Positions 776 to 57,700 of a stretch of DNA of 64,000 bases are shown piece after piece. The DNA is from Pelecanus crispus (Eukaryota; Chordata; Aves; Pelecaniformes; Pelecanidae), in the NCBI RefSeq assembly GCF_030463565.1, contig NC_134649.1:1126001-1190000 (forward strand). Direction: 5' to 3'. The position numbers and the translations under genes are program-made. The notes beneath the pieces were generated by a model, which was not told where the DNA came from, did no database searches, and was given only the letters and a program-made list of their open reading frames with translations. Position 1 is the stretch's first letter; each line of letters begins with the position of its first letter.

Positions 776-3700
776 CTGGAGGGGAGGCGAGAGGGGAAGG
801 ACAGCGTTATTGCCGGCGTCGCCGGCACGGTTGTCAGGCGTTTGGTGTGAAAATTGGCATGCGGTTGGCGGAGACGTGGACGGAGCTCACCAAACGCAGA
901 GCCCGCCTGCACCCCGGTACCGAGCACCTTCATCGTTTCTAACTGCCCGCAGAAACGACGCCTGCCTGCTGGCTGCAGTTCTGCAGCATCTTCCCAGGGT
1001 AGCAAAACCGTAAGGGGGAGCGGGGCAGAGCCCGGGGCTCGCTCCTGGGGAGGAGGGTCTGTGCCGGAGGCCTGGCAGAGGTGACAAACCCCCCGGGAAT
1101 GGCATCTCCCCCCAGTCCCCCGACCCTCCCTGCGATGCCCGCAGAGGATGGCAGAAAGGCGGTAATCCATTTTCCTATGCATTGTCTTTGGGTTATTTTG
1201 AGAACCCGCATCACCTGATTCGCTTCCTGCAGGTGTCTCGCAAACCTCAAAACAACATCGGCGTCGCTTCGAGGATGGGCTTCGTTTTGCGAACCGCTGC
1301 TCCAGCGCCAGTGCCCGGCCCCGCTGCGGGGGCAGCGCCGGGGGCAGCTGCGGCAGCGGTGGCCGTGGGTCGCAGCCTGGCCGCCCCGGCTGAGGCACTT
1401 GCAGGCTGAGCAAACTGTTTGCAGAAACCATTTCCTCTCTGCAAAGGGTCTGGAAATCACAAATCCCTCTCCAGGGCCGGGAGAGATACGTCAGGGCGTT
1501 CGGCCCAGCGCTTGGCTTCGCGGCGGGGGGCAGACGCGAGCGCTGCCCCGAAGAGACCTTGCCCTTGGAGTGCGACAGGACGGAACCCCCCACCGCCACG
1601 AAATGCCCTCGCACCTGCCCCCGCATGCAAACCACGGTGCCGTGCAAACCACGGTGCCGTGCAAACCACGGTGCCGTGCATCCCGCGGGATGGCGTGGGA
1701 CGTGGTGAGGAGGGGACAGCCCTCCCCTGCGCCGTCAGCAGAGGCGGCAGAAATCAGCCCCAGCGGCTCCCAGCTCCAGGAATCAGCCCCAGCAGCTCCC
1801 AGCTCCAGGAATCAGCCCCAGTGGCTCCATCCCAGCTCCAGGAATCAGCCCCAGCAGCTCCCAGCTCCAGGAATCAGCCCCAGCAGCTCCATCCCAGCTC
1901 CAGGAATCAGCCCCAGCGGCTCCCAGCTCCAGGAATCAGCCCCAGCAGCTCCATCCCAGCTCCAGGAATCAGCCCCAGGAGCTCCCAGCTCCAGGAATCA
2001 GCCCCAGCAGCTCCCAGCTCCAGGAATCAGCCCCAGCGGCTCCCAGCTCCAGGAATCAGCCCCAGCTGCTCCATCGCCAGCCAGGCTGGGCTCAACCAGG
2101 CTGCGGCTCGGCTTAGTTACAGCGGCAGAGCCCCATCACCAAACCCGCACTGTTGATAAGCATATATAGTCGGTGTGCTTTCATTTTTAATGTCCTCCTT
2201 TTCTCCTTCATATCAAAACACACGTGTGCCTCCAGCATCGCACCCAGTTGTGTAAGGCTCGTTTAAATGACACGAGCTCTGCCTGATTCCGCCTCCCGTA
2301 CAAGTGGCTCCAGTCAATGCCGGCTCTTCTCCGGCAAAGGGCAGAGTCGATGCTCCCTGGGGCGGACGCGCAGGGCCGGCACCCCCGGTCCCCCCGCGCT
2401 GCCCCTCCCCGGGGCACCCTCCGCCCGCGACCACGCTGAGCAGACACAGAAATGGGGCAAGAAAACGGGCTTTTCTCTTTCTCAGGACACTTTTTTGCTG
2501 GGGAAACACTGGGACCGAGCCAGGGGAGCTCTCGCTGACCACTGCTCCTCGTCATCTCCCCTCTGCAAACAAAAGGCTTTGCTCAGGGAACGGCTGCTGC
2601 CCCGATTCCCGCGGGGACGAGCCGCCGTGCAGCGGTCAATGCAAAGGACGCAGCAGATGCAGAACAGAGACTCTTCCCCCCATTTGGGATTTCAGTCACA
2701 GCCCTCACCCCCGTCCCCCCAGCCTGTCAGTAAGGAAGTCACTATACTGGCCTAAAATTAATTTTCTATTTCAGTAGACGTATTTCCTCTCTTCCTTTTG
2801 AGCAGCAGCTACGTCTGCCCCGCAACAGCCTCTGTGCCCTGAAGAAACCGTTTAACACAGAAGCTGCTTCCCACTGGCACGGTCGGATCCAACAGCTGCC
2901 GACGGACTGGGACCAAGCGCCGGATCCCGGCCCTGCATCACGCTCCCGGGCTGGGATTTGGTCCAACCTGGGCGCTGGGGCACAACGTGGGTTTTTCCTG
3001 CTGGTTGAGCAGAGCGGATGAGAAATTGCTGTGAAGCCCAGAGAGGGACGGGAGCGGTGCATGTCCCCAGACGTGCTGCAAGAGCAGCCACGCCACGCCA
3101 CAGCACCAGAGCCGGTCGGGAAAAGGGAAGAGTTTACTCGTGCGATGACCCGTCAGGGTCTCAGGGACGGTCCCCTCTGAGAGCATCGCTGTGGCTCCGC
3201 ACGGCGTCCCCTGGACCCCCAGAGCCCCTTCACATGGGGACATTCGAGCACGTGAATACACGCGTTCCTGTTCGCACGTGCTGCAGGACAGGGATGTCTC
3301 AAGCAAGGGTCTGCTGGAGGGTGGGATGGCCCTGCAGAGGGACCTGGCCAGGCTGGACCGATGGGCCAAGGCCAACCGGGTGAGGTTCAACAAGGGCAAG
3401 TGCCGGGTCCTGCACTTGGGTCACAACAACCCCATGCAGCGCTGCAGGCTTGGGGAAGAGTGGCTGGAAGCTGCCTGGCCGAAAAGGACCTGGGGGTGTT
3501 GGTTGACAGCGGCTGAACATGAGCCAGCAGTGTGCCCAGGTGGCCAAGAAGGCCAACAGCATCCTGGCTTGTGTCAGGAATGGTGTGGCCAGCAGGAGCA
3601 GGGCAGGGATCGTCCCCCTGTGCTCGGCGCTGGGGAGGCCACACCTGGAATGCTGTGTCCAGTTGTGGGCCCCTCGGCACAAGAAGGACATTGGGGTGCT

Positions 3701-6700
3701 GGAGCGTGTCCAGAGAAGGGCAGCGGAGCTGGGGCAGGGTCTGGAGCACAGGGCTGGTGGGGAGCGGCTGAGGGAGCTGGGGGTGTTCAGCCTGGAGAAG
3801 AGGAGGCTGAGGGGAGACCTGATCGCTCTCTACAACTGCCTGACAGGAGGGGGCAGGGAGGGGGTGTTGGTCTCTTCTCCCATGTAGTTAGCCATAGGAC
3901 GAGAGGAAATGGGCTCGAGCTGCGCCAGGGGAGGTTTAGGTTGGAAATTAGGAAAAATTTCTTTATGGAAAGGGTGGTCAAGCATTGGAACAGGCTGCCC
4001 AGAGAGGTGGGGGAGTCCCCATCCCTGGAGGGGTTCAAAAAACGGGCAGAGGTGGCACTTGGGGACATGGTTCAGTCTGGTCTACCCTTGACTGGTTTAG
4101 TGTGGCCTTGGCAGTGTAGGTTAATGGTTGGACTGGATGATCTTGAAGGGCTTTTCCAACCTCAACGATTCAATGATTCTATGATCCTAACACCGGGCCA
4201 CGCCAGCTGAGCTGTGCCTTAAGACGCGCCGGTGCCCAGCTCCGCCTTAGCTCACCAGTCTCGGCCATCTCTCCCCTCGTGCGGGATTCGGTAATCATTT
4301 ACTTTTCACCGGGGCACGACCGCTGGGTATCCCCCACCTGCCCAGCATGTGCTTCCTGCAGGATTTCTAAACTCGCGGTGTTTTGAGTGGCTGGTTTTGG
4401 AAGCGGTGTTGAGTAGGAGAGATGGAGAACACAGCGATGGCTCCTGGCAGGCACAGACAGGGGCTGGCGTGCTCTGGGGGGGTTAATTATTCACTGCACT
4501 GCATCGAGCAAGTGTAACAGCAGTAAAAACTCTATGGTGTTTAGAACAACTCAGTTAAAAGTACTGCATGGATGGATGGGGATGTCACTGGCGTTTCGGA
4601 GGGTGCAACGCTCCTGGGGAACGCCGTGCCGAGGCAGACCCCCGCCGAGCGCCTCGGTATTTTTAACGCGCTGCCGCTGCACGTCGCTGGGCTCGTTCCT
4701 GCCCACGAGCCTTCTGCTTATCGCAACCGTCTATCCTAGAAAGCTATTTATGGATCGCAACCAAGTCGCCTCCTGCCTTCCCTTGGAAGAGCCGCAAAGG
4801 CTGGCTTCTGGAGCCTCTCACTGCAAAGCAGCGTCCCAGGACCAGAGGCCATGGCTCAGCTCTTTTCTAATCCCTTTCCGAGGGGTCAGCACCCTGGGTG
4901 CTGGCACAGAAATTCCCGTACCTGCAGCACGCAGAGCTGTACACAGGTGTAAGCAAGCCCATCGCTCTCCTGCCAGCAGTTGTTTCTCTTCGCGCACCAC
5001 GTTATCCCGAAAGGTAGGAGCCAAAGGAACAGCGGCTGGGATGGGCTCGGCAGACGCTGGAGAAGAGCCACCACCCTTGGCTGGAGGCACTGCTGGAACT
5101 GCTCTGCTGACCTTACGTGCGACCCCGCAGCAGGACTCCGGGTGTCCAAAGCATTTTAATAAAATGAAGTCAACAGGAGTTGTTGAGCGCTCCCTGTTTT
5201 TCCAGATCGGGTCGGCTTCGGTCTGATGTAGCATCCCAGCGTGGATGGCTGCGGGGTCAAGCTCAGGTCTGAAAATCTTGGCTGAGCTCGTGATTCCTCC
5301 CTGGAATTTGGTCTTGGGCAAAGGAAGCTGTAATAAGCACTTAATTTGTCAGCTCTTCAGAGAGGGTCCCTACAGAATTGACCCAATTTTCATTTAATCC
5401 TTTTACTGTTATTTTCTTCTATTAAGAATTTTTTTTATATAATCCTAACGCTTCATTTGAACATACGCTCCAGTGTTCAAGTCTATGCCAAATTTTAGTC
5501 TAAAGAAATAGCTTAAAGCAGGGCTTTTAAAATCCAGGCTAAGTCAGCACACTAGAAACTGAAAACCCCCACTTTTTTTTGGTTGTATTTGTAAGTTGGC
5601 GTGGAAGTCGCTTTAAATTTCATTTAAGCTTCTGCCGTACAGACCTAAGCATTTACTTTTATGCTCGGGAAAAATAAACTTCCTGGAACAGGTTTTGTAA
5701 AAACAAGGAAAGGTTGAGCTTAGAGCTGAGCTAGCAAAACCAGAGAATTAAGCTGCTGACCTCTGGCCTTCGGGACGCTCTCGGAGCCAGTGCTGAATTT
5801 AACAAGTATTATCCCAGGCTCCTGCGCTGGGGCCCGCGGTGCCCTCCCCTGGGAATGAGCACTGCCGAAGGCAGCGCGCCGCATCGCAGGCAGCGCGCCG
5901 TATCGCAGGCAGCACACTGCATGGCAGGCAGCGCGTTGCATGGCAGGCAACGCACTGCATCGCAGGCAACGCGCCGCATCGCAGGCAGCGCGCCGCATCG
6001 CAGGCAGCGCGCCGCATCGCAGGCAGCACATTGCATCGCAGGCAGTGCACCGCATTGCAGGCAGTGCACCGCATTGCAGGCAGCACTAGAGCCGCGGTCG
6101 CTGGTCAGCATGCGTGCGATGGGTGCTCTGCCACCAGGTTTGCCTGCACACGGCTGCAGCTTGGAAAACTGGGAGAAGAGCAGAAAAAAACCACCGGTTT
6201 TCAGGTCTCAGCCCTGCTGCTCCTGGCACATCTCGCTCGGCTCCAGCACCGTCACGGAGCTCCCATCGACACCCCCTGAGCATCCAGCCTGGGAATTACA
6301 GAGCAGAGGGAGGAAAATGCCAGTGCTCTCTAAGACGTTCAGAGGGATTAGCCATTTTTTAGAGTCTCTGGATCCCACAGAGAGAAATTCTCATTTCCGA
6401 ATAGCTGCGGCAGAGCCAGGACTCTCCCTACGCTCTGCGTTGTCTTCCCCTTCCTTCTCACGAGTTCAGGGAGGGGGAGAAAAAGCCAGCTCTGCTGAAA
6501 GGAGTCTCTGAACATGACCCCTGCCTTCCTCTCCAAAATCCAAAACCGCTTTAAACACGCCGCGTCCAGAGCGTCCCACAGCCAACCCTGCACGGAGCAA
6601 TCAGGCTTGAGCCGCCAGCCGTGTCCCACCTACGGAGTCTTTGCACGTTTTGCCTTTCTTTAACGTGAAGATTGGGCAGGGTAACCGTGCCTGGCAGCAG

Positions 6701-9700
6701 CGCCGAGCCCTCCTCTATTGCAGGACCGAGGGAAAGCGAACCCAGGCAGGACCCCCAGCGCGCGGCTGCACGGCTGAGCGCAGTTGTTCCTCCAGCCGTG
6801 GGTTAAGCCCCCTTCCTTCATTTTCATCCTTGCTTTCCCCATTTTTAGCACTTCAAGGCCAAGGCCGATATCCTCGCTGCTGAAGGTCTGTCTTCCGCAT
6901 GGCAAAACATCCCTTTGATGCATTCTGGAGAGTTTTCAAAGAAGTTAAGGTTAATATTTTGTTGTTGGGCTCAGGCTTTGCCTCCTCCCTGCCAGGCTGT
7001 TATCGGAGGTGTCGGCGAGGGCTCCTGGCAGAGCCCGGGCTGCGGCCGCCGGCTCCCTTGGGTGCCCGCACCGGGTGCCCCGTGCCTGCACGCCCGCGCC
7101 CAAGGCAGACGAGAAGCCGATTCCTGTACCCTCCTGATTGCTTGCACTGGACCCTGGGGTCCATCGCGATTTACACTTTCTAAAACTTAAGCCTGCTCAG
7201 CCAAGGAGGGAGGAGAAGCATCTCCCACTGCCGCTAGTCGAACTATGCTTTTCCATAAAAAGCACGCGGCACCGCAATAAGGAAATCCTACTGCTCTCGG
7301 CGGGGCGAGGAAGCGTGCCTTTCCTGCTCCGTCTGCCTTTGTGCGTTTTTTTTTCCTCCCATTGCCCAGGTTTTCACGGGAGCCGCTGCGTGGGTGGGCC
7401 GGGGTGGATCGGTGTCTGGGCGCGTTGCAGGGGACCTGCACGGCACCGTTACGCTCAGACCTGGCATTTGCATCGACCCGCTCAGTAGGAAGGGCCGATA
7501 CGGGGACGCCTGAACAGCCTCCGCCAGCCCGTGCCACCGAGAGCCTTTCTCCAAAAGGTTAAAATGCGTAACAGTCGTTTCGCCTACTTTTAATAAAAAC
7601 GGGGAATCCCTTCCCAAGCACCCGTTTTTCCATTGACAGCTGCTGTTAATTAGCAGTAAATAAAGGGCACTTAATGACTCGCTCAGCAGCACCTCCCGCT
7701 CTTGCCACCTGCGTACAGACTTACATGCTCAAATGACAGAGAAAATTGGAATTTGCTGCAATTATTCCTAGTACGTATCCCTTGCGGACAAATTCAGCTA
7801 CACGCAGCACCATGAATAATGTCATTTCCCTACTCAAAACAAGAAGGAATAGAACATTTAATTGCCAATTAATCTTGAGGCAACTTAGAAATACAACCAG
7901 ACCTTGGATAACGAGCCCGGAGCGGCGCAAACGGCAGCAGGAGAAGCAGGCGCCGGGCATCTGGGATTCGCCCCAGCACGTCCCTGGCACGGGGGGGCTT
8001 TGCCCCTCTCACAGCCCCACCAAACGCGCTCCCCTGTGCTGGCTGCTCCCGGACACAAAGCTGAATTCCAGCCCGCTCCGTCCCTTCCCGCTGGCTGGAA
8101 ACCTTTGTCTCGTTCCCAGAGAAAGTGCATCCATGGCCAGCTTACACATGTTTGCTCTTGGGCCAGCTGAACGCCTTACCTTAATTCCTTTCCCTCGCCG
8201 GCATCTAAAGGCTGAGACGCTGGCGGGGAACAGTCGGCTTTGCTCAAGTGCCTTGGCCAGGGCGAAGAACCAGACCCATCTCCCGCTTGACACCTGCTTG
8301 GTGTGATCTGGGGAACTCGCACACCCACCCAGTATCGGACCCAGAGAAACGGGCACGAGGAAAATTGCCGATTTTATGACGTTTACCGCGACGCGCATCC
8401 CGCGGGCTGCGCGCGGTCGGCGCTGAACAGGGTTGTTCCACCCACCGCTGACGAGGTCCGGCCAAAAGCCACCGCGCAGGCACAGCCACTGCGCTCGCAG
8501 CACGGGGCGACTTCTGATCGGGTCACTCGTTAGCATCCTCTAATAGAACGCAACTGCTGCTGTTGTGCTGTGAGACTGCTTGACCTGGCCTTATGAGGAG
8601 CGGCTGAGGGAGCTGGGGGTGTTCAGCCTGGAGAAGAGGAGGCTGAGGGGAGACCTGATCGCTCTGCAGCTCCTGGCAGGAGGGGGCAGGGAGGGGGGTG
8701 TTGGGCTCTGCTCCCATGTAGTTAGTGATAGGACGAGAGGGAATGGGCTCAAGCTGCGCCAGGGGAGGTTTAGGCTGGAAATTAGGAAAAACTTCTCCAT
8801 GGAAAGAGTGGTCAAGCATCGGAACAGGCTGCCCAGAGAAGTGGGGGAGTCCCCATCCCTGGAAGTGTTCAAAAAACGGGCAGAGGTGGCACTTGGGGAC
8901 GTGGTTTAGTCTGGTCTACCCTTGATTGGTTTAGTGTGGACTTGGTAGTGTAGGTTAATGGTTGGACTGGATGATCTTAAAGGGCTTTTCCAACCTGAAC
9001 GACTCTAGGATTCTATGATTCTATAAACCGGCGCCGGTTTCCTTGAGCTCTCACACAGGACCTGGTGCTCAGCTCCCTTCCAAGATGGCCATTAAAAAAG
9101 AAAAAGAAGTGTAACACTTGAACACAGACATGAACATGCTGTGAGGGGGTTTTTCCAGCTTTCTGAGTTACAAGAAATGATCTGGTAACAGGAGTGGCTG
9201 ATGTGGGTGTGAGAGCACTGCTGGGGCTCGGCGCTAGGCATGGGTGGAAATCAGAGGGCAAGAGGCTTTCCTGAGCCAGAGGCTGCTCTCCGCTCCCCAG
9301 CAGCCCTGCCCGGGCTCCAGCAAATCTGTTCCCGCTCCTGTCGCCCAGGCCGTGCTGCCAGGAGGGCAGCGATGGCCTCCTCACCCCCCGGGCGCCAGCA
9401 AGGAGCCGCAGGGCTTCCCCGGCAGCCGCTAGCATGGGCAAGAGCAACGCCTCTCAGCCCCCGCGCCGATTTTCCTGCACTGGAGTCGCGCTTGTTTGAG
9501 ATCCCCGTCCCAGCATGAGGTAAGACGATCGTCCCCAGCCCGGCTGGGGCACCGCACGGAGGCATCTGGGCGCCCGACGGGCTCCGACGCTCCCTGGGAG
9601 CCACCTAAGGACACGGCCAGCCTTATCTTCTCCGCTCACAGCTGGATGCAGCGGCAACCCGACAGGCGCGCTTAAAAATAACCTCTGTGTAATCACCAAT

Positions 9701-12700: not shown

Positions 12701-15700
12701 GCGCGCTGCGCCTCGTCGCGCTGCTGCACGACCCGCAACAAGTGGCAAAACCGTGCACCCCTGAGTTTCTAGCCAGCTGTCGCCACACCAGCCCTGACCA
12801 GCGCCGCATGGTGGAAAAGTGTCTCACCCACGGCAGAGGATGGTGATGGAGGATGATGCATCGCTCCTCCATAAAAGTGATGACGGAGGAGCCGCCCGCT
12901 CTGCGGGTAACATTCCTTAACCGAGAGCCTGGGTGGTTTTCACACCAATTTCCACAATTACCGCCACGTCCTTGAAACGCAGCGTTTATCCCAAACAGCA
13001 CGCACAGGCTCTTGGGGAAGCGTAAGCACGCTGAAGACAAAACATGCCGCTTGCAGGACGGCCGCTTACCCGACTCGGAGCTCTCGCAGTCCTGCGGGTT
13101 GCACTTCTGGGTGCTCTCGGGCCAGGGCTCGTGGTCGCAGAGGCTGCTGTCCTCCTCGGCCAGCCCCGTCTTGGTGTTGATGCACTTGACCTGGCGCCGC
13201 TGGATGCCCCCGCCGCAGGGAGCTGTGCACTGCGGGAGCGGGGCAGCCCCGTCAGCCCCGGGGGGGACCCATCCCGTGCCCCAAGGAGCCCCCCCCAGTG
13301 CCGCGCTGTGCCGGCAGCACCAGAGCCCGGGAGGGTTTTATTGCAGTAGCCCCCGGTTTGGTTTTGAGGGTTGGGTTCCCCCCCCATTCCTTGCATTCCT
13401 GGCTGAACATGAGCCAGCAGTGTGCCCAGGTGGCCAAGGAGGCCAACAGCATCCTGGCTTGTGTCAGGAACAGTGTGGCCAGCAGGAGCAGGGCAGGGAT
13501 CGTCCCCCTGTGCTCGGCGCTGGGGAGGCCACACCTGGAATGCTGTGTCCAGTTGTGGGCCCCTCGGCACAAGGAGGACATTGGGGTGCTGGAGCGTGTC
13601 CAGAGAAGGGCAGCGGAGCTGGGGCAGGGTCTGGAGCACAGGGCTGGTGGGGAGCGGCTGAGGGAGCTGGGGGTGTTCAGCCTGGAGAAGAGGAGGCTGA
13701 GGGGAGACCTGATCGCTCTGCAGCTCCTGGCAGGAGGGGGCAGGGAGGGGGTGTTGGGCTCTTCTCCCATGTAGTTAGCGATAGGATGAGAGAAAATGGG
13801 CTCAAGCTGTGCCAGGGGAGGCTTAGATTGGATATTAGGAAAAATTTCTTCACGGAAAGGGTGGTCAAGCATTGGAACAGGCTGCCCAGAGGGGTGGTGG
13901 AGTCCCCATCCCTGGAAGTGTTCAAAAAACGGGCAGAGGTGGCACTGGGGGACATGGTTCAGTCTGGTCTACCCTTGATTGGTTCAGTGTGGACTTGGCA
14001 GTGTAGGTTAATGGTTGGACTGGGTGATCTTAAAGGGCTTTTCCAACCTAAACGATTCTGTGATTCTATGATTTCGTGCAAAAGCCCCGTCGCGAGAAGT
14101 GTCGTGCCCCCGTCCGCGCCCGCTCACCTCTCCCCAGGAGCCCACCACCCAGGTGGTGCAGGGGTGCGTGTTGCAGGGCCGGGTGGCATTGGGTCGCAGT
14201 GCCTCCTCGCAGCGGCCCAGCTCCGGGCACGTCACCAGCCGCTCCTGCTCCCCGCCGCCGCATGACTCCGAGCACTGCCGAGACACAAGCCGTCGGAAGG
14301 GGAAGGCAGCGGCGCAAGAGAAAGGCGGACACACTCCATGCGCTGGTGTCTTAAGGAAATAATACACTGCAAACCCACCCTACAAATACATAAGCACCCA
14401 CAAAACCTGCTTCCCGGGTGGAGCGCCCGCTTTGCAGCTACTGCTGCTATTAGCGGGTGGTTTCCTTCTCGGTGCTCAAAACTGGCTGGGAGGTTCCCAG
14501 AGGCAGGAGGATCCAGCAGACCCGCTGCAAGTATCGGCTTAGATTTTGCAGGCATGTGAACAGGCAGGCTGAGCCCGCTGCTTCCCTGCCGGCAGCGATC
14601 CGGGGGTCCTGGGCGAAGCGTCTGCACGGCCGCAGGCAGCTCAGCCCCCCGGCCGCGTGCTTGCCCGGCAGCAGCTACCGAGCATTTGCTCCGGGCAAGC
14701 AAATGCCAAACGCTGGCCGAACGTGCTTCCAGGGAGAGGGAGGAAAGATAACGGCGGGCGCGAAACACCCCGTCACAGGCACGCACGCTGCGTGCGCCCA
14801 GCCAGGAGAGAAGCCGCGCTGCAATGCTCGGGGCTTGAGAGCTGCCCCGCTGCGCAGCCCGCTCGGACCCTCCCCAGCAGCCCTCACCTCTCTCCAGGAG
14901 GACGTGTACCAGTCCAGGCACGGCGCGCGCTGGCAGGGCAGCTGCGTGGGCGGCTTGTAGAGGACAGCCTGGCAGTGGAAGGGCCGCAGGAGCCTCTGGT
15001 CTCTGGTGTCAATGCAATGCACGTCCCGAACCTTCATCCCCCCGCCGCAGCTCTGGGAGCACTGGGAAAAGACACGAGCGTCACGCTGGGGAAGGGTGGC
15101 AGGGGCCGGTGCGATCCTAACCCTAACCCTAACCCTAACCCTAACCCTAACCCTAAACCCCTAACCCTAACCCAAACCCAAACCCTAACCCAAACCCCCT
15201 AACCCTAACCCCCAACCCCCTAACCCCAACCCTAACCCTAACCCCGCCGCAGCTCCGGGAGCACTGGGAAAAGACACGAGCGTCACGCTGGGAAAGGGCG
15301 GCAGGGGCCAGTGCAACCCTAACCCTAACCCTAACCCCAACCCCCTAACCCTAACCCAAACCCAAACCCAAACCCTAACCCTAACCCCCTAACCCAAACC
15401 CAAATCCAAACCCAAACCCAAACCCCTAACCCCCTAGCCCCCTAACCCCCTAACCCTAACCCTAACCCAAACCCAAACCCAAACCCCTAACCCTAACCCC
15501 TAACCCCCTAACCCTAACCCCTCCAGCAGCAGGAGGTGACCCCAGGGACACGCTCTGCTTCGGGTCGGATTGAGTTGATACTCAACCTCTTTTCACCTCT
15601 TTCTCTAGTCCGAGCTAGGGAAAAGCCCGCGCAGCGCTGAATTTGTCACTAATTTCCTTCTGAAAGCGATCGGCTTCCAGTTGTAACGGCAATAGTCTGT

Positions 15701-18700
15701 TCTTACAGCCAATGATCTCCCACCTGCACAGCCGAGGAACGGCGCCCACCCAGAGCAGGGAGGGTTGCTCCCCGCCGTTGAAGGTACCGGATTCACCCAA
15801 CCCAACTGCAAGCACCCCCCGGTAGCGCATATTGGCAAGAATGTTTTCCAGAAACTTTCAAACCCCTCTTTGCTTAGCTTTCGCAAATTCCTGCCTTTTT
15901 AACCAGCCCAAGAGCAGGAAAAATGAAAAAAATATTGCGGGATGAAGTAGTTTAAACTCTGTGGCAAGTGCAAACCTTTACCCTCCGCCTTTGTCAGCCA
16001 TGGGGCAAGAGCACGCCCCGAGAAACGCTCTAGCCACAGGGCAGGCACCGCCCGCCTTCATCTTCCTGGGGATTTTTCGGGACTCTCCCTACCGGCCGCA
16101 CGCCCGTTTACCTTACTCCAGTTCCCCATGCGCCACGACGAGCACGGTCTGAGCGAACACCTCCGAGCGGGGACGGGCTTGTTGGCGGCGGCGCAGCCGT
16201 CGTCGCTGCCGGTGCTGCAGCGCACGGTCCTCCAGATCGCGCCCACGCCGCAGGTGGCCGAGCACTGCAAGACACGAGGCAGACGGCTGATGCCCCGGAT
16301 GCCCCGTGGCCGGCTCTAGCCAAGGACAGAGCCCGCCAGCCCAGCGGAAAAGTCGCTGGGGACTGGGCTCATCGCCCCCTGCGCGGGCATCAGGAGGGGT
16401 GCCGGTAGAACCGGGGCGTGCGGCGGCAGGGCTGCGGGACGATGCGGAGAGAGGAGCTTTCCCGGAGGCCGTGCCCCGCGCTGCCTGGCAGGGGACCCAG
16501 CCCTGCAGAGAACCCCCCCCAGCCAGAGGCTCCGCTCGAACCAGTCCCACGCCAGGCAATCCTCAGTTTGGGGCAAGAAGGAGGAAACCCCTCCTCCATA
16601 ACCCATTTCAGTCGCTTCTGGTCTGGCTGGGACTGTTTTTTCTCTCCCTGTTCAGCTTTTGGCTTCCGGGAGGATTCTCACGCCGCGGCCCCGGACCCCA
16701 GCATCCCGGCCACAGCCGCCCGCAGCTCCGTGGGCAACGGGGCAGCACCGGGGATCTCTGCGGCTGGGGGTGCCTTTAGCTTTTTTGTTCTAGGCCCCTC
16801 TTAATTAGCACTGATGGCTTCAAACATTTGCCTGCTGTCTCATAAAGCTGTTTCGCGCCCTTCTTTCGCTAGCACTGCCTGTCCCCCGCTCTTTCAGTGT
16901 TAAAAGCTCCGGCAAAGATTCCTCTCCACCTGAAAGGCAGTGCCTCCACCTCTTTCGGATCCACCCCTCGCCGTCCAGACTGATCTGATTTATTTCATAG
17001 CACCTTTCCACCTTAAAAGCCTTTGTAGGGCTTTCAAAGCACGCCCGTGTGCCTCCACGTCCCCGCGGCAGAGCTCCCTCCAACGCCCCGGCTCCACGGG
17101 CAGCGTCTGAGCGATGCTCAATGCCCCTTCGCAAAGCCCACACCTGGGACTGTATTTTGCTTTTATTAAGCATTGTCCCGATCGTTACTGGGTCCCTTGT
17201 GCAGCCTTCTTAACAGGCTCCCCCAACGCTCGGTCTCGGTTTATCCGCATTGAAGGCTTGTTATTTTTGTGCTTTCTGATAAAAGCCCGTTACTGCGAAT
17301 TGCAGCAGCTATTTGTCACTGCAAATGCCGTGCAGAGAGCAGCCCCGGGACAGCTAGGCAGTAGGAGGATAGCTGATAATTGCTGATAACCCGCCGTTCG
17401 CTGCATTCAGCACAGCCCCTTCCCTTTGGTAATTTGCAGCCTTTGATGCGCCTCACGCTCGACGTTCAAATTTCTGTCATTCCGTGGCACATTTTAACAC
17501 GCTCTCTCCCGTAACACGGCAGCAGCTTGCTCCCGTGCCGGGGGGTCTCCCTGAGTGCTCAGCCCCGGCGCGGGGCTCTGCGCTTGCCTGCTCCTCCAGA
17601 GCGGGCAGGGATTTGGGTGGGCAGCACGTTCGCTGCGCGCCGTGCACGGCCACCGCCGCCCGAGCATGCGCTGCCGGCTGGTGCCCAAGGGAGCGGGACA
17701 GCACAGTCGGAGCGTGTGAGCCGTGCACTTTTTTTTGCACGCAAAGAGCCACATCCCAGAGACCAGGCAGGAGAGGGACAGGTCTCCCCTCCATACCAGC
17801 CACGTCACACTTTTAATGGGACTCAACACGTACCTCGCTCCAGTTCCCGACCTCCCAGCTGGGGATCGCAGTGGCTGCCACGGTGGTGGACGGCAGCAGC
17901 AAAGCCTCCTCCTTCTCCACCTCTTCCTTCCCCCAGAGCGGCGGTGGGGCCGGGGTGGGCTGGGACAACTCGTGCTCCCCATCGCCGAAAGCAAGCGTCC
18001 CTGGGGTCGCCCAAGGCGAGCGCTCCCCCGGCGCGGTGCTGCCGAGCGGGGAGGTCTGCTGTGCACGGGGCGATGCCGGCTCCGGGTGCCGGGACACCCC
18101 CACGGTCCCCCATGCCGGGGGGGACTCAGAGGGCGACGCTCCCGCCGGGTGCGTGGCAGGGCCGCGAGCCGGGGCCGTGGGCACGGCTGGTGCCAGGCCA
18201 TCTTGCTGGCCGAGGCCGCTGGAGAGGAGCTGGGGGGCCGGCCCGGGCACGGCGGCCAAGGACACTGCTGCTGGAAAGGCTGTAGTGGCCACCAAGGGGG
18301 CCGAGGTCAGAGACGTGGGTGTGCGGAGCGCTGGCTGCTGCCCTGCCTGCCCCGCGGGGCCCCCGTCAGCACCGGCGGGACAGGGACTCGCGGCGGGATG
18401 AGCGCTGCCGGCGCTCCTTCCCATCTCCCAGCCCGGTCCCATCTCCCAGCCCGGTCCCTGCGGGGTGGGGAAGGAAAGATCTGCCCTCTCTGTCCCACGG
18501 GTTTGCTCGTCGGCCGCCGGCGCTGCGTGCGTGCCCGCCGTCCCCTCCGGCATTTCTCCCCACCCTTCCTGCTCCTTGGTCTCGGGGGCAGCGCCGTCAG
18601 CATTACCGGTGATGATGAGACCCATTTCCCTTGAGTCTTCACGGCCTCTCCCCACAGAGCCGGCCACGTCGTGCTCCTCGCTGCCGGCGTTACCTGGCCC

Positions 18701-54700: not shown

Positions 54701-57700
54701 CCCTCTGCCCCGTGCCCGTCCTGGGGGCGCGGGGATTTTCCCGGGATCAGCCCCTGCGAAGGAGAACCCCCCCTACACCCGCTGCCTCCAGGGAACCCCC
54801 GTGCCTCCGTTATCCCACGGCCCCCGCTCGGGAACGGGGGTCTGCGCATCGTGGGAGCCACCAAGCTATACGGAAACGCTTCTGCAAACCCCCAAGAGGT
54901 TTCAAACCCCGTGGGGACCCGGTACCCGCGCTAGCTGGATGCCAGCTGATGCAGATACGCGCGTTTACGCTGACGCCCCGAGTTTGCCTCGCTGAGTGCC
55001 AACACAAGAGTCATATTTGCAAAAGTCTCTTCGCCTTTCAGCAAAACTTAACACTCTTACAGGTCGCTACCGCCCTCGGAAATATTTGCAGTGGAATAAG
55101 GCAGGGGAGGCGTTCAATAAAGAAGTTTCACTCTACGTGAGCTGCGTTATTGTAAATACCTCCAGGTCTCCCACGCCTTGTTTTCAGATGTGTTTCTCAG
55201 AATCCTGTGTTTATGGACTAGGAGATGGAGGTGACATGAGAATTGCTCTCTTTGGGAATTTGGACACAAGCAAGTAAACACAGTCCCGGAGAGTTCCCAC
55301 ACCACTGGAATCCATGGGAAACTCACAGTCAGCTCATCCACGGCCGCATCAAACCTACGCGACGAGACCCTGACTCCGCCGCTGTCGGGAGGAGCTTTAC
55401 TTATTTACTTATTTTTATTGTTGAGGTTGGAAAAGACCTTTAAGGTCATCCAGTCCAACCATTAACCTCACACTGCCAAGTCCACACTAAACCAATCAAG
55501 GGGAGAATAGCAATTTCATGTTTCCTGGCTTGGTGGCTGGATTATTTTTAATGAAAGTAAAACCAGGAATCACTAAGGTTGGGAAGGATCTCTAAGATCA
55601 TCAGCCCAACCATCACCCCAACACCCCCATGCCCACTAAACCATGTCCCCAAGTGCCACCTCTGCCCGTTTTTTGAACACTTCCAGGGATGGGGACTCCC
55701 CCACCTCTCTGGGCAGCCTGTTCCAATGCTTGACTACCCTTTCCGTAAAGAAATTTTTCCTAATTTCCAACCTAAACCTCCCCTGGCGCAGCTTGAGCCC
55801 ATTTCCTCTTGTCCTATCACTAACTACATGGGAGAAGAGCCCGACCCCCCTCCCTGCCCCCTCCTGCCAGGAGCTGCAGAGCGATCAGGTCTCCCCTCAG
55901 CCTCCTCTTCTCCAGGCTGAACACCCCCAGCTCCCTCAGCCGCTCCCCACCAGCCCTGTGCTCCAGACCCTGCCCCAGCTCCGCTGCCCTTCTCTGGACA
56001 CGCTCCAGCACCCCAATGTCCTCCTTGTGCCGAGGGGCCCACAACTGGACACAGCATTCCAGGTCGCTTTCAGCAGAAAAAAAAGGATTTCACACAGCTT
56101 CAGCTATTTCCTTACTGACTAAAAATCTCCCTGCTTACCAGGCCATCACACGTGCTGAGCGCGGCCAGACCTCCCGTCCGCGCCCGGCTCCGAACCTCCC
56201 CGATCATATGGCAGGAGTTGTAGGCGTGGGACTGGATCTTGGCGTTGGCGATCCCCCCGTATCGCCTCTCGCTGACGAACCCGGGCGCCAGGAGGTTGTT
56301 GTTGAGGCTCAGGTTGAATTTCAGGGGTTGTCCTTTGTAATGCAGTTCATAGAAGGCGAGAAACTTGCTCCTGGAGGAAGGAGACCTTCGGTGAAGCGCT
56401 CGGTGGGACAAATCGTAGGACAGGAACGATCCGCTCTCGTCAACCTTGACGGGATGAACGATGTCGCTGCTGGAGTAGGACGGAGCAGGCTCTGCGAAGA
56501 AAGGGGGGCACTGGTTACCTTTTGGGTGGATCCCCGTTCCTCTCCTGCCCCTTCAGCTGGATGCTGAACTCCCAGGGCAGCCCAGCGGGGTCAGGGACCC
56601 AAATACCAGTTGGATCTGCTAACTGGTGCCCGCTGCCGAAGGCAGGGAGCCGGGAAGGGCAGGAACCCCACGGCCGTGGGGCGCACGGGGCCCCACGCTG
56701 CCCCTCCTGCCCGCGGGGGTCAGGGGCTGGGACTTTCCGTGGGAGAAGGTTAAGGTCAGGGTGGGGAGGGATGGGGGTGGGTCAGGGGGGGCCGCGCAGC
56801 CCCGGGGCTCTGCTCCGGCCGGGCTGCTCCCGGTTTCCATACACGTTTAGTTACGACTGCCGGGGGAAAAAAAACCAAGCAAACAAAAAACCAAACCTAA
56901 AGAAAAAATCCCCCCCTCAAAAATCCCAAGTCGCAGTTTTGAAACGGTGTTTGGAAGCCGTCTCCGGGGGCAAAGCACCCCCCGGGCACTGGGCACCCAG
57001 CAGCTGGGTGCGAAGCGCTGCGGCCGGGGGACCCGGGAGGGGACCGGGGGGGCCTGGGGGGGACCGGGGGACCTGGGGGCAGCTGGGGGGGGGCCCGGGG
57101 GGACCTGGGGGAACCGGGGGACCTGGGGGCAGCTGGGGGGGGACCCGGGGGGACCTGGGGGAACCGGGGAACCTGGGGGCAGCCGGGGGGGGGGGACCCG
57201 GGGGGGACCCAGGCAGGGACCGGAGAACCTGGGTGGGACCGGGAGGAGACCCGGGGGGGAACCGGGGGGAACCAGGGGGGTCCCGGGGGGAACCGGCGGA
57301 CCTGGGAGGAGCCGGGGGGGGACCGGGGGGACCTGGAGGAACGGGGGGGAACCGGGCGGGGACCGGGGGGAGCTGGGGGACCTGGGGGGGACTCGGGCGG
57401 GGACCGGGGGGACCCGGGGGGAGCCGGGCGGGGACCGGGGGGAGCCGGGCGGGGACCGGGGGGGGAGCCGGGAGACCTGGGGGGGAACCGGGGGACCTGG
57501 GGGGGACCCGGGCGGGGAGCGGGGGGACCTGGGGGGGACCCGGGGGGGACCTGGGGGGGAGCCGGGGAGAGACCCGGGGGTGGACCCGGGGGGAGCCGGG
57601 GGACCTGGGGGGGACCCGGGCGGGGACCGGGGGGAGCCGGGGGTCCAGCCTTGCCGCGCTCGCCCAGCGCGGGGGCTGCAGCGGCGGGGAGCCCCGGGCT

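What the first reader, a model, noticed from the sequence alone, without database searches (positions are those of the whole stretch)
15040..15526. Telomeric repeat tract that has copied a splice acceptor and exon edge of ADAMTS7
The first 22 bases of exon 21, its acceptor (TTTTCCCAG) and about 50 bp of intron recur, almost unchanged, 202 bp upstream, embedded in CCCTAA-type telomeric repeats. The tract thus looks like a tandem array whose unit is exon edge plus telomeric DNA. The duplicated acceptor is a complete decoy site in the right orientation; if used it would read CSRSCGG and then into TTAGGG repeats. Interstitial telomeric sequence is known from break repair and old fusions, but a unit carrying a splice acceptor of a living gene is unusual. 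Copy number could vary between individuals.
Basis: partly seen in the sequence, partly recalled or inferred. Interest (0 to 1): 0.75.

Follow-up and report, generated by a model that had tools for sequence, protein, structure and literature searches.

The report
Telomere repeats copied an exon edge
In one bird's ADAMTS7 gene, stray chromosome-end DNA inside an intron has been duplicated together with the start signal of a working exon, leaving a look-alike signal that seems to keep an older version of the exon; it is probably a harmless scar, but it makes a ready test of whether telomere-like DNA in introns disturbs splicing.

Summary
Intron 20 of a bird ADAMTS7 gene (minus strand) carries CCCTAA-type DNA, and the first 22 nt of exon 21 plus 51 nt of adjoining intron occur twice, 202 bp apart, each copy running into telomeric repeat at the same base. 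The copies differ at 6 of 76 sites, all transitions; a search of the window's own 1.31-Gb assembly found the unit only at these two places. That speaks against a recent assembly duplicate. One difference can be polarised: the working exon encodes CSQSCGG, the intronic copy CSRSCGG; of 142 scored ADAMTS7 relatives 117 have R, 24 K, 1 G, none Q. So the decoy most likely keeps the ancestral codon and the duplication predates the exon's change. The decoy acceptor equals the real one over 36 nt, but only weak donors and a stop after 36 codons follow it, within a dense UAGGG/G-run tract. Best reading: interstitial telomeric DNA inserted by break repair, then a small tandem duplication with one end in the repeat; splicing effect nil or slight nonsense-decay leakage. 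No RNA data and no other bird's DNA were available: decoy use, copy-number variation and phylogenetic age are untested.

The parts
14888..15061 (-). exon 21 of ADAMTS7, 174 nt, phase 0/0, a thrombospondin type 1 repeat beginning CSQSCGGGMK
   Evidence: (TSP1_ADAMTS, E 2.5e-12 for 14678-15160)
15055..15090 (-). working acceptor region: 7 nt of exon, AG at 15062-15063, pyrimidine tract, likely branch point; identical to the decoy
   Evidence: the branch point (GTGAC, A about 20 nt upstream) is recognised by a recalled consensus
15040..15112 (-). copy 1 of the non-telomeric unit (22 nt exon, 51 nt intron)
15113..15241 (-). telomeric tract 1 (TTAGGG strand is the sense strand); its first hexamer carries two transitions away from AACCCT
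15242..15314 (-). copy 2 of the unit: decoy acceptor (AG at 15264-15265) plus 22 nt of exon edge coding CSRSCGG
15315..15521 (-). telomeric tract 2
15153..15155 (-). first in-frame stop if the decoy acceptor is used (after 36 codons)
15062..16111 (-). intron 20 (1050 nt), between exons 20 and 21
16112..16264 (-). exon 20, 153 nt, phase 0/0

Best explanation
A short interstitial telomeric sequence was inserted in intron 20, about 51 nt upstream of the exon 21 acceptor, most likely while a double-strand break was being repaired (inferred from the mammalian precedent). Later a replication or repair slip with one end inside the repeat and the other at the C-run in exon 21 (up to 4 shared C) duplicated exon edge, acceptor and part of the repeat in tandem (shown: the shared junction; inferred: the mechanism). 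Afterwards the copies diverged; the working exon changed R to Q while the intronic copy kept R (shown by comparison). The decoy is a sequence-complete 3' splice site but a poor exon: weak donors, an in-frame stop, and an extended exon filled with UAGGG and G-runs. I expect the spliceosome to use the proximal acceptor almost always; rare use of the decoy would give a transcript fit for nonsense-mediated decay (inferred).
For: Two copies with one common junction to the repeat. Only two places in the assembly. 6 of 76 differences, all transitions, 4 of 6 at CpG/TpG-CpA contexts. 142 scored relatives: R 117, K 24, G 1, Q 0. First telomeric hexamer is intact in copy 2 and has two transitions in copy 1. 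Acceptor core identical over 36 nt. Best donor-like GT after the decoy scores 0.91 against 6.27, 6.19, 4.25 and 3.38 for four donors of this gene, with a recalled matrix. 33 of the 57 TAGGG on the window's minus strand lie in the tract. None of 146 predicted relatives holds a telomere-coded dipeptide run of the kinds scanned. Precedents: telomeric inserts at break sites, sometimes with direct duplication of the target (PMC7215372, section 9), nucleotides in register at the break (PMC2246262, section 9).
Against: No empty orthologous site was available, so insertion and its direction are not shown. Shared order of repeat variants between the two tracts: token tests 393, 450, 462 and 273 of 1000 shuffles reach the observed score, base-level 109 and 16 of 1000; only one of six supports in-register copying. 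No telomerase-RNA flank: Rfam gave 0 matches. All 6 differences fall outside the acceptor core, P 0.018 if both copies were free, which could hint that the decoy too is constrained or was converted. No RNA data.
Confidence: 0.62

Rival explanations
1. The decoy is used at an appreciable rate, making a 376-nt extended exon 21 with a premature stop, and so lowers ADAMTS7 output by nonsense-mediated decay.
For: Decoy and real acceptor have the same pyrimidine count (13 of 17 at -20 to -4) and the same 29 intron nt; that tract is as good as or better than those of exons 20, 22 and 23 (12, 9, 11) and below that of the mucin exon (16). In a yeast reporter, telomeric repeats in an intron reduced mature mRNA, less so in the TTAGGG-sense orientation that applies here (PMC9272169, section 13).
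Against: Exon definition favours the nearer acceptor; the extension is full of UAGGG, a strong hnRNP A1 motif linked to silencing (PMC4932749 and PMC3794818, passages). Against that argument: the hnRNP A1 proofreading of U2AF needs absence of AG (PMC3629564, passage), so that particular route would not reject this decoy.
Confidence: 0.17
2. The tract is a working splicing regulator: sense UUAGGG repeats bind hnRNP A1/H and form G-quadruplexes, the decoy holds spliceosome parts, and repeat length sets the inclusion of the in-frame, skippable exon 21.
For: G-quadruplex folding lowers the predicted energy of the tract from -138.3 to -239.4, against -162.9 (sd 16.4) for 20 base shuffles with quadruplexes allowed. 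Exon 21 is 174 nt in phase 0/0, so skipping keeps the frame. Substitutions spare the acceptor core.
Against: No sign of conservation could be tested; exon 21 is present in 143 of 146 predicted proteins, the other 3 being non-ADAMTS7-like rows, which says nothing of this species' isoforms. Quadruplex and motif density follow from any telomeric tract.
Confidence: 0.08
3. The repeat did not come from telomerase at a break but from copying of one of the degenerate telomere-like arrays that this genome carries away from chromosome ends.
For: Unit make-up: TTTGGG 16% and 34% and TTAGGGGG 11% and 17% in the two tracts; at 13 chromosome-end places TTAGGG is 87-100% and TTTGGG at most 1%; at five arrays away from the very end TTAGGG is 43-68% and TTTGGG 4-14%.
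Against: Direct alignment scores of both tracts are higher with the chromosome-end loci (89-95 and 116-129) than with the five inner arrays (66-75 and 81-101); ageing of an ordinary insert could give the same make-up.
Confidence: 0.2
4. Assembly artefact: two alleles or a mis-joined read laid in tandem.
For: Telomeric repeats are hard to assemble; the assembly is not polished by anything I could check.
Against: 7.9% divergence (95% interval 2.9-17.2%) with transitions only; one unbroken stretch without N in the window; only one locus in the assembly.
Confidence: 0.04

Closest known systems
Short interstitial telomeric sequences inserted at double-strand breaks (human, horse, rodents; PMC7215372, PMC2246262)
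   Same: A short TTAGGG array inside a chromosome, in an intron (31% of human ones are), with duplication of flanking sequence as sometimes seen at horse loci.
   Different: Here the duplicated flank includes an exon edge and a full 3' splice site, and the repeat lies on both sides of the copy. None of the human ones lies in an exon (PMC7215372, passages).
Tandem duplications that copy a splice site (for example intron gain by tandem duplication, PMC4974935 and PMC2891723, seen only in a search listing)
   Same: A short tandem duplication carries a splice signal along.
   Different: No donor came with it, so no intron or exon is gained; the partner sequence is telomeric repeat.
Pseudoexons and cryptic acceptors held silent by hnRNPs (MTRR pseudoexon, PMC4932749; Alu exons, PMC3629564)
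   Same: A good-looking acceptor in an intron next to hnRNP A1-type motifs.
   Different: No good 5' splice site after it; origin by local duplication and not by a transposon.

Membership tests
[quoted passage not shown]
   unbroken perfect matches from 15121 to 15156, six units
Short interstitial telomeric sequence (ITS) | internal chromosomal position | tested here: met
   contig C7 of 52,003,911 bases, tract about 1.14 Mb from its start, which holds a telomeric stretch between runs of N
Short interstitial telomeric sequence (ITS) | empty orthologous site in a relative, showing one-step insertion | not testable with these tools
   no bird DNA other than the own genome; scans of viral contigs and genome contigs confirmed 0 relatives
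Short interstitial telomeric sequence (ITS) | nucleotides in register with the repeat at the break | tested here: inconclusive
   minus-strand flank ends GGAGG before GGTTAGGG, but the original break cannot be placed without an empty site
TERC-flanked ITS | flank derived from telomerase RNA | tested here: not met
   0 Rfam matches up to E 1 in 14600-16000; a very short fragment could be missed
Tandem segmental duplication | direct copies with a common internal junction | tested here: met
Tandem segmental duplication | copied repeat tract in the same order | tested here: inconclusive
   one of six order tests below 5%
Pseudoexon | acceptor and donor of ordinary strength | tested here: not met
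   acceptor met; best GT after it scores 0.91 against 3.38-6.27 for four donors of the gene, recalled matrix

The most novel reading that the evidence does not exclude
A length-variable telomeric array carrying spare acceptors is a heritable splicing dial for ADAMTS7: units are gained and lost between individuals, each adding a decoy 3' splice site and more hnRNP A1/G-quadruplex sites, and so shifts exon 21 inclusion or mRNA level.
Probability: 0.05. Interest if true: 0.8.

Novelty: new variant of a known kind. Interest (0 to 1): 0.42.

Why it matters
[quoted passage not shown] This locus is a natural version of that experiment with an internal control: two acceptors, identical over 36 nt, one beside an ordinary exon and one inside the repeat. 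The intronic copy also works as a small molecular fossil that dates an amino-acid change in the exon relative to the duplication. In my searches (titles and abstracts of the listed papers only) I saw no paper on an interstitial telomeric sequence that carries a copied splice site; most subscription journals are not in that library.

Tried and rejected
Rejected or left open. (1) My first impression from the alignment, that the two telomeric tracts share the order of variants, did not hold in the token tests; a base-level test gave one positive in two. I therefore do not claim in-register copying. (2) Search for a donor array by alignment: observed scores exceeded order-shuffles even against pure TTAGGG telomeres, so the control is not informative; no donor named. 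(3) hnRNP A1 proofreading as the reason for decoy silence: dropped, since by PMC3629564 it needs absence of AG. (4) Dating: 6 of 76 gives about 16-33 million years with assumed rates of 1.2-2.5e-9 per site per year (95% limits 6-72), 4 of 73 gives 11-23 (3-59); the rates are recalled, the paper I looked in gave none, CpG sites inflate the figure, so I use it only to say 'not recent'. (5) Grus japonensis P0068 looked like a lost exon start; reading it showed a join from the mucin exon into exon 21 without exon 20, probably a prediction error, and it could not be scored. (6) A micro-exon of 21 nt from the decoy: possible frame-wise but no donor of strength. (7) Phage collection search: no match, as expected. 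(8) Other bird DNA: none reachable.

Full report
What is there. The window lies in a bird ADAMTS7 gene on the minus strand. Five of ten stretches scanned match the Pfam family TSP1_ADAMTS, the exon 21 stretch at E 2.5e-12; metalloprotease, disintegrin-like and cysteine-rich pieces are visible further up, and a C-terminal PLAC-like exon near 740-680. A protein search with a query joined from these exons gives ADAMTS7 of birds at the head of the list (1406 hits, 120 listed). The best match over the C-terminal 878 aa is Theristicus caerulescens, an ibis, at 87.5% (family); the species itself is not named by any search. The window's own assembly is held: 1.314 Gb in 310 contigs, window at C7:1126001-1190000 of a 52.0-Mb contig.

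Anatomy. Exon 21 (14888-15061, 174 nt) and exon 20 (16112-16264, 153 nt) are both whole in phase 0, with 1050 nt of intron between. In the intron, copy 1 of the unit (15040-15112, of which 22 nt are exon) meets telomeric tract 1 (15113-15241); then comes copy 2 (15242-15314) and tract 2 (15315-15521). On the sense strand the repeat reads TTAGGG. Both copies of the unit meet the repeat at the same base. Copy 2 starts in the C-run of exon 21, where four C are shared with the end of tract 1 (one search prints both edges). The 36 nt from 15055 to 15090 are the same in both. Between the likely branch point and the AG there is no other AG, so the decoy is a full 3' splice site by sequence; the branch point rests on a recalled consensus.

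More than chance. Telomeric dimers: 27 matches against 0.34 expected. The unit: two places in the genome, both here. For the search with the whole locus, only this place matched at full length; 301 matches were counted and part listed, and those listed fall in the telomeric part of the query.

Which copy is older. Six of 76 sites differ, all transitions. At 15054/15256 the working exon reads CAG (Q) and the copy CGG (R). I compared exon 21 in 146 proteins from two searches (which list 120 rows each of 1406 and 2442 hits); 142 could be scored, four were set aside (P0068, where the site did not align, and P0121-P0123, which are not ADAMTS7-like). R 117, K 24, G 1, Q 0. Some rows are isoforms of one species, and a few are turtles and crocodiles, so these are not 142 independent lineages. 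The first telomeric hexamer is intact in copy 2 and has two transitions in copy 1. Three sites thus point to copy 1 as the changed one. Gene conversion cannot be excluded. The simplest order is: repeat inserted, unit duplicated, then R to Q in the working exon.

Order and origin of the repeat. That both copies meet the repeat at the same base means that the repeat was there before the duplication, or that it was copied with it. If the whole tract was copied, its variants should stand in the same order in both tracts. Four token tests (393, 450, 462, 273 of 1000 shuffles at or above the observed score) and two base-level tests (109 and 16 of 1000) leave this open. The tracts have an unusual make-up: TTTGGG 16% and 34% of units, TTAGGGGG 11% and 17%. 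At 13 chromosome-end places that I fetched, TTAGGG makes 87-100% and TTTGGG at most 1%; at five arrays elsewhere (one of them 41 kb from a contig end) TTAGGG makes 43-68% and TTTGGG 4-14%. So the tract has either aged and re-amplified inside, or was copied from such an array; alignment scores, in contrast, are higher with the chromosome ends. Mammalian work gives the precedent for insertion at breaks, with direct duplication of target sequence at some horse loci (PMC7215372, section 9) and nucleotides in register (PMC2246262, section 9). No telomerase-RNA flank was found.

What it does. If the decoy were used with the normal donor, the exon would be 376 nt, shifting the frame by one, with a stop after CSRSCGG and 29 repeat-coded residues. 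Donor-like GTs in the stretch after the decoy score at most 0.91 against 3.38-6.27 for four donors of this gene (recalled matrix). The tract holds 33 of the window's 57 minus-strand TAGGG and 11 non-overlapping quadruplex motifs (7 and 4), and quadruplex folding is predicted to dominate it. UAGGG is the hnRNP A1 selection motif (PMC3794818, passage) and UAGG a strong binding motif with silenced pseudoexons as examples (PMC4932749, passages). In yeast, telomeric repeats in a reporter intron lowered mature mRNA, more in the CCCTAA sense than in the TTAGGG sense (PMC9272169, section 13). From this I expect a mostly silent decoy. The steps shown are structure, polarity and coding consequence; use, binding and effect are inferred.

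Limits. All six differences lie outside the acceptor core (P 0.018 if both copies were free; if only the decoy branch could change there, P of none is about 0.07). This may be chance, conversion, or constraint on both. Artefact is unlikely given the divergence but was not tested on reads. No RNA and no orthologous DNA were available.

Noticed in passing
G000:C7 (contig with the window, 52.0 Mb): The longest-contig column for ADAMTS7 proteins of many birds shows about 20-25 Mb, but 50.2 Mb for Theristicus, close to the 52.0 Mb here; a chromosome fusion in this lineage is possible.
   Followed up: no
L021-L025 (C1:87.32 Mb, C15:0.70 Mb, C34:1.53 Mb, C23:0.19 Mb, C189:0.04 Mb): Long degenerate telomere-like arrays rich in TTTGGG and TTAGGGG variants lie away from the chromosome ends proper.
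   Followed up: partly
L009 (C7:1-10000): Contig start reads N for 2500 bases, then about 2.5 kb of perfect telomeric repeat, then N for 5000 bases.
   Followed up: no
window 1748-2081 and 5869-6084: Minisatellites of 29/62-bp and 19-bp units in the last intron of ADAMTS7.
   Followed up: no
window 57026-57643: Long G-rich tandem array, about 10-11 and 32-bp periods, in the most GC-rich kilobase of the window (85.6%), perhaps near the gene's first exon.
   Followed up: no
window 8526-8915 and 13255-13968, minus strand: Two stretches with similar translations that look like CR1 LINE remnants (recalled resemblance).
   Followed up: no
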